Of a DNA stretch of 42,570 bases, positions 210 to 15,889 are shown piece by piece. The notes below the pieces were generated by a model. The model ran no database searches. It was not told the DNA's origin and worked only from the letters and a program-made list of their open reading frames with translations. This DNA is from a virus. Each line of letters begins with the position of its first letter. Position 1 is the first letter of the stretch. The position numbers and the translations under genes are program-made. The stretch is from positions 1-42,570 of the IMG/VR virus record IMGVR_UViG_3300036785_000787; one strand, given 5' to 3'.

Positions 210-329
210 ATGGACAAGAAACAACAAGCTTCTCTCGACTACCTCAAGGCCGTGCTTGAGCGCATTGCAGCCCGCAATGACAAATGTGCAGAAGTAGCCC
301 GCAAGGCACTCCAAGAAAAAGGAAAGTAG
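210..329 (+). CDS. Small early protein, 39 aa, unknown
   Basis: The frame opens with ATG right after the promoter cluster and encodes a 39-residue charged, probably helical protein that starts MDKKQQASLDYLKAVLERIA. There is no good Shine-Dalgarno sequence, and the start lies only a few bases after the last TAGACT box. The message may therefore be nearly leaderless, or the start may be served by another promoter. A terminator-like hairpin follows at 404-429. I do not recognise a family. Its place as first gene of the early operon suggests an immediate-early function, but none can be assigned. Confidence 0.6.
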   Translation: MDKKQQASLDYLKAVLERIAARNDKCAEVARKALQEKGK

Positions 330-403
330 AAAACGGACGCCGAGTTTGTTTAGGGCTAGACCGGGAATTTCACACGGTGGCTTGCGTGACAGCAAGCGGT
401 AAC

Positions 404-429
404 GGGCAGAACATTTCCCTGCTCTTTTT
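404..429 (+). terminator. Intrinsic terminator or attenuator after the first early gene
   Basis: GGGCAG (404-409) pairs with CTGCTC (419-424) with one G-U wobble, and five T follow directly. It lies between the first small gene and the DUF932-like gene, so it would reduce rather than abolish downstream expression unless read through. Confidence 0.5.
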
Positions 430-434
430 CGTTT

Positions 435-476
435 GGTTGCTCCACAAGCCGCGCGTGCGCGGTTTTTGGCGCAATC
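435..476 (+). other. Nested hairpin element A
   Basis: An outer stem GGTTGC (435-440) with GCAATC (471-476, one G-U pair) encloses an inner stem CCGCGC-GT-GCGCGG (449-462), followed by a T-run. The same nested design recurs at 1342-1390 and 1801-1852, each time just upstream of a gene with a GGAGCA-type ribosome-binding site. It may act as attenuator, RNA-processing site or mRNA stabiliser. Confidence 0.5.
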
Positions 477-496
477 ACGCGCTTAGGAGCAACAAC

Positions 497-1345
497 ATGA
501 ATATGCAGAATAACGTTTACGCGCAGACCGCACGCTTCGATACTGGTCGCGCGTTGAGCGAAGATGAAATGCGGCGCATGGCGCCGTCCATCTTTGCGAC
601 TAGCGCACACCCTTCTCGAAGTGATCGGTTCTCGCCAATTCCGACAATTGACGTTCTGCGAGCTTTGAAGTCCGAAGGCTTCGAACCCGTAGGCGTAAAG
701 CAATGCAAAGCGCGTGACCTGACTAGGATCGAATATACCAAACACCTGATTAGGTTGCGGCGTATGGACGATGAGAAGAAGTACCGAGTTGGCGATACTG
801 TCGCCGAAGTCTTGCTCAAGAACGCGAATGATGGCACAGCGGCCTACGATTTGCTGGCCGGTCTATTCAAGATCTTGTGCATGAATAGCTTGGTCGCGCA
901 AACGACCACGATGGACAGTTTGCGTGTCAAGCACCAAGGCGACGTGGCCGCCAAAGTGATCGAGGGCACTTATCGCGTTCTCGATACGGCCACGAAAGCT
1001 TTGGAAGCACCTGTTGAATGGTCGCGGATCATGCTTGACCGCGATGAACAGAACGTGTTTGCCGAAGCCGCGCACGAAGTTCGGTTTGATCATGTCGATA
1101 CGCCGATCAGGCCAATGCAATTACTGATTGCGCGTCGCACGGCCGATCAGCAACCTAATCTCTGGAACACGTTCAACGTCGTTCAGGAAAACGCTGTACG
1201 TGGCGGTCTTACGGCCATGGGACGCGATGCCAACAACCGCCCACGTCGCACTACGACGCGTGCGGTGAATGGTATCGATCAGGATGTGAAGCTCAACCAA
1301 GCCTTGTTTACGCTGGCCAGCAAGATGGCCGAACTGAAGCGTTGA
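497..1345 (+). CDS. DUF932-like phage/plasmid protein
   Basis: The chosen ATG follows TTAGGAGCAACAAC, a strong ribosome-binding site. An upstream extension of the frame to 284 is not supported. The 282-residue product has the features of the DUF932 (phage/plasmid-like protein) family: an SDRFSPIPTIDVLRALKSEG segment near residue 45, a basic middle region, and a long helical stretch with DGTAAYDLLAGLFKILCMN and a conserved-looking SLRVKHQGD. Members are common in plasmids and early regions of phages, sometimes next to anti-restriction genes. The biochemical role is not established. The stop codon lies inside hairpin element B. Confidence 0.8.
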   Translation: MNMQNNVYAQTARFDTGRALSEDEMRRMAPSIFATSAHPSRSDRFSPIPTIDVLRALKSEGFEPVGVKQCKARDLTRIEYTKHLIRLRRMDDEKKYRVGDTVAEVLLKNANDGTAAYDLLAGLFKILCMNSLVAQTTTMDSLRVKHQGDVAAKVIEGTYRVLDTATKALEAPVEWSRIMLDRDEQNVFAEAAHEVRFDHVDTPIRPMQLLIARRTADQQPNLWNTFNVVQENAVRGGLTAMGRDANNRPRRTTTRAVNGIDQDVKLNQALFTLASKMAELKR

Positions 1346-2841: not shown

Positions 2842-2998
2842 GACAGGCGCGGGTCGGATGCTCCGTATTGGGGGCCATGTGCCTCGGTATTCAGAAAGTC
2901 AGTCTGTGGCAGATCCGCGTCTTGCTGCATGAGCGGCCATTCAAGGCTGACAACACATGGCGGGGGCGGGTAAGGGCGCATGACCTTGCGTCGCCCCA
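2842..2998 (+). other. Leader region of the repeat array, no gene
   Basis: No plausible gene. One possible decayed array-like block lies near 2932-2960: AGCGGCCA, then nine bases, then an ACAACACAT word. It is out of register with the array. An imperfect GC-rich hairpin is possible between about 2974 and 2997. No clear sigma-70 promoter is seen, so the array may be transcribed by read-through from the early operon. Confidence 0.4.
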
Positions 2999-4118
2999 CT
3001 TAAGCCGGGCAGTCGGATCAACATCAGGAAGGATGAGCGAGCCATTCAGAAAGATCAAATCAGGACTCAGCAGCGAGCCAACATATTCTATCAACATCAT
3101 GCATGCCAAGCGAGCCACGCTCGACAATAAACATCAGCAGAGAAGATGCGAGCCTAGGAGGATGACCATCATCTGCCCGGTTCAGCGAGCCACAACAAGA
3201 GATCAACATCCGTTACCGCCAGCGAGCCATTGCTGCTGATCAACATCAGAAATCACGAGCGAGCCACCGGGTACTCTCAACATCATGCTTGATAAGCGAG
3301 CCAAAGAGCCTTATCAACAAGCAGGACGTAAAAGCGAGCCAAAATTCACAATCAACATCAGCATGTGTAAGCGAGCCACGACCGCGGATCAACATCATAG
3401 TCGAAAAGCGAGCCACGCGCGCAAATCAACACCTCGCCAGCGAAGCAAGCCACTATCGGGAATCAGCATCAAAGGCTATTAGCGAGTCATTTTTCGTCAT
3501 CAACATCAATGCAAGAGAGCGAGCCAACATGAAGGAATAACATCAATGCGAGTGAGCGAGCCACCACTGACGATCAACATCATCCGTCACAAGCGAGCCA
3601 GAGCCGCAAATCAACATCAGAAGCTAATAGCGAGCCAAAGCCGAAAATCAACATCAACCACCCGTAGCGAGCCATAGGACGGTATCAACATCATGAGCGG
3701 GAAGCGAGCCAAGGAGGTCAATAAACATCAGACCTTAATAGCGAGCCGGGACCTACGACAAACATCAGGCTGTGATAGCGAGCCAAAGCTACCTACCAAC
3801 ATCATGCGGTGGAAGCGAGCCAACCCGTCCAATCAACATCATTGAATGCGAGCGAGCCACTGAGCAATACTGGCATCAGGGGAAGCAAGTGAGCCAGAGA
3901 GCAGAACTATCACCACCTTCAAAAAGCGAGCCAAAGCTACAGATCGACACCAGCCGGAATAAGCGAGCCACTGCTTATAACCAACATCAGCGCACGAGAG
4001 CGAGCCAATGGTTCTAACTACCATCATCGACAATGAGCGAGCCATGGATCTTGACCAACATCAAAGCAGTTAAGCGAGCCACTGCAACGGACTAAAATCA
4101 GGGTAATCAAGCGAACCC
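2999..4118. repeat. TIGR-like dual-spacer array, about 30 units of 37 bp
   Basis: Each unit is AGCGAGCCA (9), variable block A (9), ATCAACATCA (10), variable block B (9). AGCGAGCCA-type blocks start at 3036, 3072, 3109, 3147, 3184, then every 37 bases to 3295, at 3333, and every 37 bases to 4110; a degenerate first block lies at 2999. Twenty-four of the 30 from 3036 on are exact. The second block is looser: 11 of 30 are exact and most keep CATCA, and it drifts toward ACCAACATCA in the units nearest the protein gene. The A and B blocks look unrelated from unit to unit (for example ccactgacg with tccgtcaca; gagccgcaa with gaagctaat). Read on the minus strand, the second block becomes TGATGTTGAT, reminiscent of box C. 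The 37-base period rules out a coding repeat. This matches the published tandem interspaced guide RNA design (units processed to 36-nt RNAs with two short spacers). The transcribed strand is undecided: the plus strand is favoured by operon direction, the minus strand by the box-C-like word. Confidence 0.88.
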
Positions 4119-4133
4119 AAATGGAGAACCCAA

Positions 4134-5117
4134 ATGACCGAGTACAGCAATGTCAAAGCAATGGTGCGCGGTACCTACGACCTGCAAAAGCTGCGCATTC
4201 AAACCGCACTGCGCTTGTATGCCAACTTCCGCGCCAAGCTAAAGTCTTCCGAGCCAGAAGAGGAAGAAACAGAGGAAGGCGAATTGTCGGAAAAGGCCGT
4301 CAAACTGATCGACAAACTGAAAGCGGAATACAAGCTGATCACCGCCGGCATTGCCCGCAACCGCACCCTGCCAACGCGCGAGGGCTTTGTCGGCCAAGAA
4401 CTAATCTCAACTTTCCCCGAGCTTGTCCTCGTGGATCAGTACCTCGCACTGGAGCGCGACGAGAAAAAGCAATTCTCGCAATTCGAAGCCGTGTTGGACG
4501 AAATCCCAATCTATCGCGACTACCTCAAGCATATCGTTGGCATCGGACCGGCCATGGGCGGCGTCCTGATCGCGGAGCTGGATCCAGGCAAGCCGAAACA
4601 CGTCAGCGGCTGGTATCGCTATATCGGCATCGATGTGGCTAATGACGGCAAGGGACGCTCGCGGCGCAAGGAGCATCTTGTCGAGTACACCTACAAGAAC
4701 AAGGCCGGCGAAGAAGCCACCCGCATCGGGCTAACCTATAACCCGTGGCTGAAATCCAAACTCGTTGGCGTCCTGCCGGGCAACTTTCTGCGCTTGGGCT
4801 CGCCGTGGCGTACAGTGTATGACGGGTACAAGCATCGGCTCGAAACCGATCCAACCCGACAAAAGGCGACGGTTGCCGAATACAAAAAACTACACAAGAC
4901 AGATCCCGCCGCCGCAGCCGAACTCTGGACGCCGGGACGCATCGACAAAGCATCCAAGCGCTACATGGTGAAAATCTTCTTGCACTGTCTGTGGGACAAG
5001 TGGCGCGCAATGGAAGGATTGCCGGTCGATGATCCATATCCGGTCGCCAAGCTAGGCCTGCCAAAGCACGGCAACAATCCGGAGGACTTCTACCCGCCGC
5101 AAGCGTCGGCCGCATAG
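4134..5117 (+). CDS. tasA: TIGR-associated protein, nuclease-less TasA type (Nop/IS110 C-terminal-like)
   Basis: This 327-residue protein starts 15 bases after the last array block, with GGAG at 4123-4126 before the ATG. Residues 1-125 are helical and include an acidic run (PEEEETEEGE, about 41-50). Residues about 130-290 match the IS110/IS116 transposase C-terminal (Transposase_20) and Nop-like fold: a helix-hairpin-helix HIVGIGPAMGGVLIAELD at 133-150, then a GWYRYIGID segment, a basic KGRSRRKEH loop, and a YNPWLKSKLVGVLP helix followed by W-R-T-V-Y-D-G-Y-K. The IS110 N-terminal DEDD catalytic domain is absent, and there is no HNH or RuvC motif. Known Tas proteins bind tigRNAs through a Nop domain and direct DNA binding; forms without a nuclease are called TasA. 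I infer RNA-guided DNA binding without cutting, perhaps transcriptional interference. A lone transposase fragment is less likely given the adjacent array and intact frame. Confidence 0.85.
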   Translation: MTEYSNVKAMVRGTYDLQKLRIQTALRLYANFRAKLKSSEPEEEETEEGELSEKAVKLIDKLKAEYKLITAGIARNRTLPTREGFVGQELISTFPELVLVDQYLALERDEKKQFSQFEAVLDEIPIYRDYLKHIVGIGPAMGGVLIAELDPGKPKHVSGWYRYIGIDVANDGKGRSRRKEHLVEYTYKNKAGEEATRIGLTYNPWLKSKLVGVLPGNFLRLGSPWRTVYDGYKHRLETDPTRQKATVAEYKKLHKTDPAAAAELWTPGRIDKASKRYMVKIFLHCLWDKWRAMEGLPVDDPYPVAKLGLPKHGNNPEDFYPPQASAA

Positions 5118-5140
5118 GTCGAAAAAATCCCAAAAAAAAA

Positions 5141-5188: not shown

Positions 5189-5260
5189 ATGCGGAAACTG
5201 GAAGAACGCCAAAAAAGCACTGCCGGCCAAGCCGGCAGTGCAAGTTCGCGAGTACCCTAA
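5189..5260 (+). CDS. Tiny ORF, 23 aa
   Basis: CTTAGGAGAACAA gives an ideal ribosome-binding site for this ATG. The product is 23 residues (MRKLEERQKSTAGQAGSASS plus three more). The second half lies inside a perfect 11-bp hairpin, so the reading frame may be a leader peptide rather than a functional protein. Translation across the hairpin could affect the following genes. Confidence 0.45.
   Translation: MRKLEERQKSTAGQAGSASSRVP
5211..5241 (-). terminator. Perfect intrinsic terminator, minus orientation
   Basis: GCACTGCCGGC (5217-5227), loop CAA, GCCGGCAGTGC (5231-5241) is a perfect 11-bp stem. On the minus strand it is followed at once by six T (5216-5211). On the plus strand no T-run follows. 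It would stop leftward transcripts before they enter tasA and the array. Confidence 0.7.
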
Positions 5261-5291: not shown

Positions 5292-5591
5292 ATGGACGAC
5301 AAGATCGAGCTTGCCGCGCTGATGCAGCGGATCCATGGATCGCTGGAGGCCATCGACAAATCCGTAAACGAAATCGCCAGCGTCATGCAAACCCTGCGCG
5401 ACCGCTCCGACGCCGAGCTCAAGCAACGCATGGCGCAACTCAACGCCATCGCCGCTACGCCGAAATTCGCTTCCGGCCGCTGGACTAGACGCGACGGCGA
5501 CGGCTTTGCTAACTTGCCGTCCCGCAGCGCAATTCCGCTACCAGACGCAGACGCGGCCAAACATGGCGACGGTTCGTCAGGGAATTTATGA
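5292..5591 (+). CDS. Possible small terminase subunit or coiled-coil protein
   Basis: CAGGAGACAGCA precedes the ATG. The 99-residue product starts with a long heptad-like helix (residues 1-60, MDDKIELAALMQRIHGSLEA...), consistent with oligomerisation. It ends in a flexible region rich in Gly, Asp and Arg. Its position directly before, and 29 bases overlapping, the large terminase gene suggests the small terminase subunit. The usual helix-turn-helix is not obvious, so the call is by position only. Confidence 0.5.
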   Translation: MDDKIELAALMQRIHGSLEAIDKSVNEIASVMQTLRDRSDAELKQRMAQLNAIAATPKFASGRWTRRDGDGFANLPSRSAIPLPDADAAKHGDGSSGNL

Positions 5592-7362
5592 TCTTTTAAC
5601 GAGTGTCGAAATCGACACCAAAGAGCTTGGACGTGCCAGGGTCGATCCCTGGCCGTCCCAGCGGTTAGTCATCGACGCCGTTGCCAGAGGATTGCAGGAA
5701 GGTGTTCACGAATTCGTCGTTCTCAAATGCCGCCAAGTCGCCATCACGACGGTTTGCAGCGTCATTGAGCTATTTTGGGCATTGGCAAATGCTGGCGTAC
5801 AAGGCGCCATCATTGCGGATCGCACCGACAACCTTGAGCGCCTGCGGCGCATTTTTGCCAGCCTGCTCGAAACCCTCCCGCCAGAATGGCGCTCGCCCGA
5901 GCACCGACTAACTCAGAATAACCGCACCGGCATGGCATTTGCCAATCGGTCTGTGATCGATTTGCTGGCCGCCGCTTCCAATCCAGATCTCGGCGCTTCC
6001 CGCGCGCTCAACATGATGCACGCAACAGAATGCGCACAATGGAAGTCGCTTGCTGGCGTGGAAAGCCTAAAAGCATCATTGGCGCGGCAAAACCCGAACC
6101 GGCTCTACATCTGGGAAAGCATCGCCAACGGCTTCAACTGGTATTACAATTTTTGCCAACAAGCGAAACAAGACCGCCATATGCGGTTTATTTTCATCGG
6201 CTTTTGGGCTAGTCCAAGCTATGCCATTCCTAAATCAGATTCCGATTTTAAAATTTACTGGGACGGCGGCAAGCTGACCGAAGAAGAAATCACTCGCGCT
6301 CGCTACGTCAAACAACAATACAACATCATCATCAAACCTGAGCAAATCGCATGGTGGCGGCGCGAAAGCGAATTCCGTCACGAAGAATACATGCTGCGGC
6401 ATTACCCGTGGCACGAACGGGAGTGCTTCATCGCCAGTGGCAGCGGGTTCTTCCCGGCGCAGCGAACTCTCGAAATCTCCGAGCAACTCTCGCCATCAGG
6501 ACCGCCCTACAAGGGCTACAAATATTTTTTCAACGAACAGTTTCTGGAAAGCCGGATCGAACCGACGACTGATCGCGATGAAGCTATGTTGAAAGTCTGG
6601 GAACCGCCAGAGCCAGATGGCATCTATGTCATCGGTGTTGATCCAAGCGGCGGTGGCGGCGGCGACAGTGATGATCATGCAATCCAAGTCCTGCGCTGCT
6701 ATGCCGACAAAATTATTCAAGTAGCTGAATTCAGAACCAACAAGCCACTCACCTATCAAATTGCCTGGGTCCTGGCCCACCTTGCTGGCGCGTACAAAGA
6801 TCATATCGCTAATCTGGAAGTGACTGGTGTTGGCGCCGCAGTGCTGCCAGAGGTGCGCAATCTGCGTTTGATGGCTCAACGCGGCATTCTGCAGGGGGCT
6901 CCCGGGTCGGGAAACATTCTCGACATGATCGGCGCGGTGCGCTGGTTTCTCTACCGGCGTGCCGATACGCTCGGCGGGGCAGGTAACGTGATTGCCTGGA
7001 AGGCCAACATTGACAACAAGCATCAAACATACAGCGAAGTGCGCGATAGCCTCATGCTGCACCGGCTGGAAATCCGTTCATCCGCGTTGATCACGCAAAT
7101 GCAGGCCGTCATTGAGGATGAGGGATGGATCGGCGCCGGCCCGGATACCGGGGAAAACGATGATCTGGTGTCGGCGCTGGTTCTGGCGCATCATGCCTGG
7201 GTTGAATGGCGCTGGCCCGCCCTGGTCGCGCGTAACTACACCTGGGACCGGGTCAAGGGTCAGCGTCCGCCGGCCAATATCGGAACCATGCTTAGTTTTG
7301 CGTTCTCGCAAAAGATGGCCGATATCAACAAAAAGGCGCAAGTGCGCAAGGAGAAATTCTAA
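5563..7362 (+). CDS. Terminase large subunit
   Basis: The 599-residue product (start MATVRQGIYD chosen; an in-frame start at 5506 would add 19 residues) has the packaging motor layout. A Walker A-like KCRQVAITT lies at 55-63, and a Walker B-like LNMMHATE followed by CAQW at about 149-160. The C-terminal RNase H-like nuclease has Asp360 in VIGVDPSGGGG, a Glu in NLEVTGVG near 425, and a late Asp pair in GENDDLVSALVLA. Length is typical for large terminases. It translocates DNA into proheads and cuts concatemers. Stop and next start overlap as TAATG. Confidence 0.92.
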   Translation: MATVRQGIYDLLTSVEIDTKELGRARVDPWPSQRLVIDAVARGLQEGVHEFVVLKCRQVAITTVCSVIELFWALANAGVQGAIIADRTDNLERLRRIFASLLETLPPEWRSPEHRLTQNNRTGMAFANRSVIDLLAAASNPDLGASRALNMMHATECAQWKSLAGVESLKASLARQNPNRLYIWESIANGFNWYYNFCQQAKQDRHMRFIFIGFWASPSYAIPKSDSDFKIYWDGGKLTEEEITRARYVKQQYNIIIKPEQIAWWRRESEFRHEEYMLRHYPWHERECFIASGSGFFPAQRTLEISEQLSPSGPPYKGYKYFFNEQFLESRIEPTTDRDEAMLKVWEPPEPDGIYVIGVDPSGGGGGDSDDHAIQVLRCYADKIIQVAEFRTNKPLTYQIAWVLAHLAGAYKDHIANLEVTGVGAAVLPEVRNLRLMAQRGILQGAPGSGNILDMIGAVRWFLYRRADTLGGAGNVIAWKANIDNKHQTYSEVRDSLMLHRLEIRSSALITQMQAVIEDEGWIGAGPDTGENDDLVSALVLAHHAWVEWRWPALVARNYTWDRVKGQRPPANIGTMLSFAFSQKMADINKKAQVRKEKF

Positions 7363-14413: not shown

Positions 14414-15889
14414 ATGCGCCGGAAAACCCCGCTCCCAAAGAGAAGGGTTAATCAACTCTATCTATCTCCCGCGTATTATTCTTCGCCCTCAGACGTTCCA
14501 CATCCTCCGCTGGAACCGCATTACACCGTTCCTTTCTCGCATTTGCTTGATCCACCATTTGATCAAATGGTGAACCCGCCATTATGGTGGGAACCAATCG
14601 GGGCGACTGGAGCGACTGGAGCGACTGGAGCACCCGGACCTTCCGGCGGACCTGTTGGACCGACCGGCCCAATTGGCCCAACTGGCCCACCGGGCACTGG
14701 CGGCGGTGGCACGGGCGGCGGCGCGACTGGGCCAACCGGAGCGATTGGTCCGACTGGCCCCGCTGGCCCGGCCGGACCGACCGGAGCGCAGGGGGCCATT
14801 GGCCAAACCGGACCAACAGGAGCTGGCGTAACCGGGCCAACAGGAGCGCTAGGTCCGACTGGTCCTGGTGGTGGGGCGACCGGAGCAACCGGCGCTGTCG
14901 GGCCGACTGGTACGGCTGGCGCTCTAGGACCGACTGGAGCGCAGGGGGCTATCGGGCCAACTGGAGCGGCGGGACCAACTGGGCCCGCAGGATCAACTGG
15001 AGCTGCAGGCCCGACTGGTGTTGGAGTGACTGGATCAACCGGAACGGCTGGAGCACTCGGGCCGACCGGAGCGGCTGGAGCAATCGGGCCGACTGGACCT
15101 CTCGGACCGACTGGAGCTGGAGTAGCTGGACCGGTCGGACCGACTGGCGCGGCCGGATCTACTGGAGCGGCTGGAGCAACTGGAGCCGGCGGATCGGTCG
15201 GACCGGTTGGGCCTACCGGAGCCAGTGTGACCGGACCGACTGGCGCGGCCGGACCTACTGGAGCAACTGGAGCCGGCGGATCGGTCGGACCGGTTGGGCC
15301 TACCGGGGCAACTGGAGCGCCAGTCGCTTCTAGTACCACCCCGATCATGGACGGCACGGGCGCGGTCGGGACCGCCACCACCTATGCCAGAGGAGATCAC
15401 GTTCATCCGAGCGACACCTCGCGCGCCGCTCTCGTGTCCCCGACATTTACTGGAACGCCAGCCGCACCCACGCCGACCGCCAACACCAACACAACGCAAA
15501 TAGCAACCGCAGCATTTGTGAATGCCGCCATTGCTAATCGCTTGGCCCGAATGCTGGATACGGTCGTAACGCTTACGGACGGCGCTACAGTCGCACTCGA
15601 TGCATCACTCAGTAACGTGTACCGGCTAACGGCGGCAGGAAGTCGAACGATCTCGGCCCCGACAAACAAACCCGCTGCCGGTCAAGCGCAACGTATCGTC
15701 ATCATGCATCAGGCGAGCGGCGCAAACCAAACACTGACGCTCGCCACCGGAGCCGCTGGAGCATTTTCATTTGGGACCGACATTACGGCATTGACCGCCA
15801 CCACCAGCGGCCTGACCGATCACATCGGCTGTATCTACAATTCAATAGCTGATCGCTGGAACGTCGTTTCCTACACTAAGGGGTTCTGA
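14414..15889 (+). CDS. Collagen-like fibre protein with shared anchor
   Basis: Residues 31-59 contain [15 protein letters not shown] and PPLWW, an anchor shared with the spike at 16647. Residues about 63-310 are Gly-X-Y repeats ([15 protein letters not shown] and similar), expected to form a collagen-like triple helix. Residues about 315-375 contain a fibre repeat module ([13 protein letters not shown] then [10 protein letters not shown]). The C-terminal 110 residues form a probable head domain. A second ATG at 14407 opens a 14-codon frame overlapping the upstream stop (TAATG) but stops early. I chose the ATG at 14414. It is probably a trimeric adhesin or surface fibre. Confidence 0.85.

What the first reader, a model, noticed from the sequence alone, without database searches (positions are those of the whole stretch)
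2999..5117. Phage-encoded TIGR-Tas system: dual-spacer array plus TasA-type protein
Seen: about 30 units of 37 bp with two conserved blocks and two 9-base variable blocks, directly followed by a 327-residue protein with an IS110/Nop-like helix-hairpin-helix (HIVGIGPAMGGVLIAELD) and no HNH, RuvC or DEDD catalytic domain. Known: TIGR arrays are processed to 36-nt RNAs with two short spacers and are bound by Nop-domain Tas proteins, and these occur in phages. Inferred: this is a nuclease-less TasA system for RNA-guided DNA binding. With about 60 spacer blocks, it could silence host or rival phage genes. The array could alternatively serve as binding sites for the protein.
Basis: partly seen in the sequence, partly recalled or inferred. 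Interest (0 to 1): 0.96.

Follow-up and report, generated by a model that had tools for sequence, protein, structure and literature searches.

The report
Phage TIGR-TasA system, odd guide loop
This soil phage carries a recently described kind of RNA-guided DNA-binding system: about 30 paired short guides next to one guide-binding protein. Its guide RNAs have an unusual loop, and comparison with relatives suggests such guide arrays change by duplicating and reshuffling half-guides.

Summary
At 3000-4118 lie 30 units of ~37 bp (edge AGCGAGCCA, 9-nt spacer A, loop ATCAACATCA, 9-nt spacer B), running straight into a 327-aa gene (4134-5117). The protein passes NCBI's curated TIGR-Tas model, matches TasR by sequence, and its predicted fold is closest to solved TasH and TasR; no nuclease domain was found. 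So this is a TIGR-TasA system (Faure et al. 2025, PMC12045711): a known kind.

Three things go beyond the label. (1) The loop is unusual: among 54 distinct arrays parsed, 52 have a 9-nt loop with a G...C box pair; only this lineage has a 10-nt loop with two pyrimidines there (64 of 67 units). (2) A relative 94% identical in TasA shares only about half the units; whole units come, go and move, while edges stay fixed and spacers drift about as fast as synonymous sites. (3) Across 57 arrays, half-unit sharing within an array is ~8-10 times expectation, suggesting growth by duplication and half-unit recombination.

No target was found: ~1,000 guides against 1.7 Mb of related phage DNA gave chance-level matches. 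Function is therefore inferred.

The parts
2860..2990 (+). Intergenic stretch upstream of the array, shared (about 80%) with relatives that lack the array (L004/L005); probably holds the start of the transcript
   Evidence: BLAST window 2860-2971 to L004 3370-3479, 80%; no sigma-70-like site found on the + strand
3000..4118 (+). TIGR array: 30 units of about 37 bp, edge AGCGAGCCA / 9-nt spacer A / loop ATCAACATCA / 9-nt spacer B; truncated edge at both ends
3002..3007 (+). 5'-truncated edge repeat (AAGCCG) opening the array
   Evidence: sequence; same position in L002 reads AAGCCA; truncated edges at array ends are described in PMC12045711
4110..4118 (+). 3'-truncated edge repeat (AGCGAACCC) closing the array just before the tasA ribosome-binding site
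   Evidence: L002 equivalent at 4625
4134..5117 (+). tasA: 327-aa Nop-domain TIGR-associated protein without nuclease domain
   Evidence: NCBIfam NF052498 104.6 bits; PDB 9mty E 3.7e-6; phrog_4285 4.7e-27; AlphaFold pLDDT 84.2, Foldseek TasH 2.9e-8 and TasR 7.4e-8
2972..5122 (+). Accessory cassette (array + tasA) missing from the otherwise collinear relative L004, where about 320 bp with an 85-aa ORF stand instead
5506..7362 (+). Terminase large subunit just downstream (context; used to collect relatives)
   Evidence: phrog_2 1.4e-17

Best explanation
A phage-borne TIGR-TasA system. The array and tasA are probably transcribed as one RNA, since the array runs into the tasA ribosome-binding site. 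The array transcript is cut inside each edge repeat into about 30 guide RNAs of about 37 nt. In each guide the two edge halves close a 2-bp stem (G-C and C-G); a TasA dimer holds one edge and one loop repeat. Spacer A pairs with one DNA strand and spacer B with the other over about 18 bp, and TasA, having no nuclease, binds and probably bends the DNA, blocking transcription or replication of host or competitor DNA. Shown here: array, protein family, predicted fold, orientation, edge covariation, the lineage-specific loop, array turnover. Inferred from the published homologues: transcription, processing, guide binding, DNA targeting. Pure inference: the silencing purpose. The loop of this lineage (AYnAACAYCA, 10 nt) lacks the G and the G...C box pair that all other parsed arrays of this TasA type have, so one TasA subunit must recognise the loop differently from the edge, or with less pairing.
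For: Family model above curated cut-off; TasR sequence match; predicted fold nearest TasH/TasR, then IS621 and, weakly, Nop5. Dual-repeat array far above chance. In 70 of 79 TasA loci fetched from IMG/VR an array lies on the tasA strand, in none on the opposite strand. Edge pair 2-7 is G-C in 27, A-T in 23, G-T in 4 of 54 distinct arrays with no exception, and pair 3-6 is C-G in 50, T-A in 3, T-G in 1: RNA-type covariation. Arrays of Salicola phage CGphi29 (published SpTIGR) and Microcystis phage Mvi-JY20 have like repeats and end in a truncated edge and a terminator. Loop anomaly: 67 loops of this lineage have T/C at both positions 2 and 8 in 64 cases; it is held in two phages whose tasA differs at 94 of 981 nt, mostly synonymously (60 synonymous codon changes, 18 residue changes). 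Processing is published for homologues including a TasA, and tandem-spacer targeting for TasR and TasH (PMC12045711).
Against: No target found, so guide function in nature is unproven. Spacers in shared units differ at 27 of 225 sites, about the rate of four-fold sites in tasA (21 of 137), so there is no sign that spacers are conserved for fixed targets. No promoter identified on the + strand. TM-scores to solved Tas proteins are moderate (0.4-0.5 on the query). The box D / pairing rule described for TIGR repeats is not kept in the loop.
Confidence: 0.9

Rival explanations
1. The repeats are DNA binding sites (iteron- or centromere-like) for the protein encoded next to them, and no guide RNA is made.
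For: The array lies directly before the gene; TasA-type loci have occasionally been reported next to ParB-like genes (PMC12045711). The protein has a helix-hairpin-helix-like stretch.
Against: Edge repeats covary with G-C, A-U and also G-U pairs in 54 of 54 arrays, as expected of RNA. All arrays read in the same direction as tasA. Binding-site arrays do not need two 9-nt blocks of free sequence between every repeat. The family model and nearest folds are RNA-guided proteins.
Confidence: 0.05
2. The protein is an IS110-family transposase remnant or a domesticated one, and the array is an unrelated repeat.
For: phrog_4285 is labelled transposase and IS110-like folds are matched; IS110 and Tas share the Nop-like domain.
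Against: NCBIfam IS110 model gives only 11.9 bits against a cut-off of 140, while TIGR_Tas gives 104.6 against 100. No DEDD domain. Association with dual-repeat arrays recurs in 70 of 79 relatives.
Confidence: 0.02
3. The array is a decaying relic: tasA still folds but the guides and the changed loop no longer work.
For: The loop has lost the G...C box pair; several units have length errors (units at 3036, 3109, 3295); spacers drift at about the synonymous rate.
Against: Edge repeats are almost unchanged between the two phages (2 of 117 sites) while spacers are not (27 of 225). tasA changes are mostly synonymous, with the residue changes clustered in the N-terminal part. The changed loop is uniform over 30-38 units in two phages, which decay would not give.
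Confidence: 0.08

Closest known systems
TIGR-TasA (e.g. Flavonifractor plautii FpTIGR; Faure et al. 2025, PMC12045711)
   Same: Solo Nop-domain protein beside an array of edge / spacer A / loop / spacer B units with 9-nt spacers; truncated edges at the ends; phage home.
   Different: 37-bp unit instead of 36; 10-nt loop AYnAACAYCA lacking the box D G and the G...C pair; 30 units (paper: most often 5 to 15); array upstream of tasA and running into its leader, without terminator of its own.
TIGR-TasH of Salicola phage CGphi29 (SpTIGR)
   Same: Same edge core (AGCGAGCCA); 36-bp dual-repeat array; predicted fold of P0001 is closest to TasH structures 9w04/9vzx.
   Different: TasH has an HNH nuclease domain, the window protein does not; loop AGACAACCA of the usual type.
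Related TasA loci in IMG/VR (L087/L051, L090-L167)
   Same: 38-56% identical TasA proteins with arrays on the same strand; same edge repeat types.
   Different: 9-nt AGnAAnCCA loops in all that were parsed; arrays more often downstream of tasA.
IS110/IS621 RNA-guided recombinases and box C/D Nop5
   Same: Share the Nop-type RNA-binding fold (IS621 E about 1e-3, Nop5 E about 0.1).
   Different: IS110 has a DEDD domain and a single bridge RNA; Nop5 works with fibrillarin and L7Ae; neither has guide arrays of this kind.

Membership tests
TIGR-Tas | Nop-domain Tas protein | tested here: met
   NF052498 104.6 bits, cut-off 100; TasR 9mty E 3.7e-6; Foldseek TasH/TasR E down to 2.9e-8
TIGR-Tas | Adjacent array of two alternating 8-12-nt repeats separated by about 9-nt spacers | tested here: met
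   9-nt edge, 10-nt loop, 9-nt spacers, 30 units
TIGR-Tas | Truncated edge repeat at the 5' and 3' ends of the array | tested here: met
   AAGCCG at 3002-3007 and AGCGA-ACCC at 4110-4118; no terminator follows, since tasA follows directly
TIGR-Tas | Box C-like end (CCA/UCA) on both repeats and an edge stem kept by covariation | tested here: met
   Edge ends CCA, loop ends YCA; edge pairs 2-7 and 3-6 intact here and covarying in 54 arrays
TIGR-Tas | Matching box D / pairing between edge and loop (usual, called 'almost always' in PMC12045711; not a defining feature) | tested here: not met
   Loop position 2 is T/C in 66 of 67 units and never G; 52 of 54 arrays have G...C there, the two exceptions being this lineage
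TIGR-TasA subtype | No HNH or RuvC nuclease domain | tested here: met
   Pfam and NCBIfam show none; model has N-terminal long helices and the Nop-like region only
TIGR-Tas | Array processed to about 36-nt RNAs bound by Tas | not testable with these tools
   needs small-RNA sequencing
TIGR-Tas | tigRNA-guided recognition of both DNA strands | not testable with these tools
   needs binding assay; no natural target found
IS110 transposase | DEDD domain and IS110 profile match | tested here: not met
   IS110 equivalog 11.9 bits against cut-off 140; no DEDD-like fold in the model
CRISPR array | One repeat of about 25-36 nt with similar-sized spacers | tested here: not met
   Two different 9-10-nt repeats alternate with 9-nt spacers; cas genes were not searched systematically

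The most novel reading that the evidence does not exclude
TIGR arrays are self-diversifying guide libraries. With no acquisition genes, they create new 18-nt split guides by duplicating units, recombining at the short edge and loop repeats so that a spacer A meets a new spacer B, and letting spacers drift; this phage lineage has in addition evolved a new, asymmetric guide RNA loop that its TasA reads without the G-C box pair.
Probability: 0.35. Interest if true: 0.72.

Novelty: new variant of a known kind. Interest (0 to 1): 0.5.

Why it matters
How TIGR arrays arise, expand and find targets is stated as an open question in the founding paper (PMC12045711). This locus and its relatives give a usable comparison set: two phages whose tasA proteins are 94% identical and whose arrays share about half their units, plus about 55 distinct arrays. 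The data argue for internal duplication, half-unit recombination and drift, and against strictly end-polarised growth as in CRISPR. The changed loop gives a natural test of how strict the box C/D rule of Tas proteins is, which matters for building guides for TasA-based tools.

Tried and rejected
Targets: spacer pairs in the published geometry (5'-A, 0-2 nt, rc(B)-3') were searched in the window, in 1.08 Mb of terminase-related phages and, with 1,019 unique guides from 73 arrays, in 1.7 Mb of loci. Matches with at most one mismatch were as many as in control geometries (8 against 8, 11 and 6), and none lay in the array's own locus. The one perfect hit (L088) had been fetched by pattern. Exact-pattern scans of IMG/VR for five guides shared by both arrays gave 1, 0, 22, 19 and 2 stretches. 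The 22 are mostly one conserved gene, in contigs of other metagenomes, and the 19 are scattered GC-rich genes, so none is a convincing target. A first impression that spacer differences between the two phages fall at third codon positions was not borne out by the other shared units.

Host: terminase search of GTDB genomes found only a 28%-identical copy in a Chloroflexi MAG; the window has no tRNA and its first 25 kb have no close relative among GenBank phages. Host unknown, so host targets could not be searched.

Known RNA family: none in the window by Rfam. CRISPR and IS110 rejected (see membership test).

Full report
What is there. The window is a 42,570-base IMG/VR virus record with terminase large subunit, major head protein, tail fibre proteins and an amidase endolysin. 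Just upstream of the terminase, at 3000-4118, lie 30 tandem units of about 37 bp: edge AGCGAGCCA, 9-nt spacer A, loop ATCAACATCA, 9-nt spacer B. The array opens with a 5'-truncated edge and closes with a 3'-truncated edge, and the ATG of a 327-aa ORF follows 15 nt later at 4134. Lag-37 identity is 0.56 against at most 0.32 in 500 resamplings, and the composite pattern occurs 27 times against 0.07 expected.

What the protein is. Pfam has nothing, but NCBIfam NF052498 (TIGR-Tas system) scores 104.6 against a cut-off of 100, and phmmer against PDB finds TasR (9mty) at 3.7e-6 (9mty is cited in the TIGR-Tas paper). An AlphaFold model from 44 aligned sequences (pLDDT 84.2, pTM 0.79) matches TasH and TasR structures best (E 2.9e-8 to 6e-5), then IS621 (1e-3) and Nop5 (0.1). 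The model shows long N-terminal helices and the Nop-like region and no nuclease domain. It is therefore a TasA.

Relatives. A terminase search gave 80 related phages from IMG/VR. Among 50 of their records, four match the Tas family profile; one of these is weak, E = 0.003. L003, nearly identical to L002 where they overlap, carries a 94%-identical TasA. L007 carries a divergent TasA (289 aa) with two arrays of its own kind at the same place upstream of the terminase. L087/L051 carries a 56%-identical TasA with about 22 units, plus a 5-unit satellite array far away among structural genes. L004 is an empty-site relative: window 2972-5122 is replaced by about 320 bp with another small ORF. The cassette is thus an accessory module. 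A wider TasA search returned 80 loci; 70 of the 79 newly fetched ones have at least three array units on the tasA strand and none on the opposite strand.

Repeat structure. In one consensus per distinct array (54 arrays), edge positions 2 and 7 are G-C in 27, A-T in 23 and G-T in 4, and positions 3 and 6 are C-G in 50, T-A in 3 and T-G in 1. This is covariation of the kind expected if the two halves of a cleaved edge close the mature guide RNA, as reported for TasR (PMC12045711). The window keeps this edge stem. The loop is different: 52 arrays have 9 nt with G at position 2 and C opposite, and only the window lineage has 10 nt, AYnAACAYCA. In 67 loops of this lineage position 2 is T or C in 66, and the pair of positions 2 and 8 is pyrimidine-pyrimidine in 64. 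The paper says edge and loop motifs almost always covary; here they do not. That is the ground for calling it a variant. Six TasA residues differ from nearly all 41 comparison proteins (A25, P154, G159, I166, S208, N217); whether they touch the loop is not known.

How the array changes. Window and L002 arrays (29 and 38 parsed units) share 13 collinear units and 2 more out of order; the best null alignment score was 4 in 100 shuffles. Whole units are gained or lost in the interior, not only at one end. Edge repeats differ at 2 of 117 sites and spacers at 27 of 225, while four-fold sites differ at 21 of 137 in tasA and 20 of 294 in terminase. In 57 arrays, 40 unit pairs within an array share one spacer (at most 1 mismatch) but not the other, against 4.9 between arrays and 4.0 in shuffles; whole or nearly whole duplicates number 32, against 3.5 and 0.6. 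The simplest reading is unit duplication plus recombination at edge and loop repeats, then drift. Where new spacers come from in the first place is not answered. Two different targets sharing half a site, or a few parsing slips, could explain some pairs but hardly the excess.

Targets. None found, in the phage itself, its relatives or other TIGR phages. One guide identical in both arrays (AAGCCGAAA/ACCACCCGT) has a perfect split match with a 1-nt gap in an ORF, which I take to be an RNA polymerase beta-like gene from its translation alone, in another phage contig. Other exact-pattern scans gave scattered or single-family hits, so I treat it as possibly chance.

Verdict. A real TIGR-TasA system, so a member of a known kind, with a derived guide loop not seen in any other array parsed here. 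Its comparison set bears on the open question of how TIGR arrays evolve. Guide processing, DNA binding and purpose remain inferred from published homologues. The literature check covers an open-access library without bioRxiv, so newer TIGR work may exist; PDB already holds 2026 TasH entries.

Noticed in passing
L051 15545-15748 (IMGVR_UViG_3300036817_000042): Satellite TIGR mini-array of about 5 units between structural genes, with the same repeat type as the main array that follows tasA elsewhere on the same contig (L087 6784-7570).
   Followed up: partly
L007 2330-2790 and 3100-3583: Two TIGR arrays on either side of a small ORF, beside a divergent TasA (1461-2330), at the same place upstream of the terminase as in the window: different TIGR systems share this spot.
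   Followed up: partly
G051:C1:40072-40090 (L088, IMGVR_UViG_3300005563_000038): Perfect 18/18 split match (1-nt gap) to a guide shared by both arrays, inside an apparent phage RNA polymerase beta-like ORF. Single case, may be chance.
   Followed up: partly
L019 6006-6440 and 3972 onward; L040 about 1150: Long arrays of GGCNN-type 5-nt units (GGCAAGGCGTGGC...) upstream of the terminase in relatives without TIGR; function unknown.
   Followed up: no
L223 6467-6825 (Microcystis phage Mvi-JY20): TIGR array of about 10 units after a TasA-like gene annotated 'hypothetical protein'; the last truncated edge merges into a terminator hairpin. Array unannotated in the record; host is a cyanobacterium named in the record, so this may be a good bench system.
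   Followed up: partly
window 14957-15318: Collagen-like tandem repeats in a tail-fibre-like gene.
   Followed up: no
window 5217-5241: Strong hairpin GCACTGCCGGC-TTG-GCCGGCAGTGC, terminator-like only on the - strand, between tasA and the small ORF before the terminase.
   Followed up: no
window 284-1345: DUF932 protein (PF06067) upstream of the cassette.
   Followed up: no
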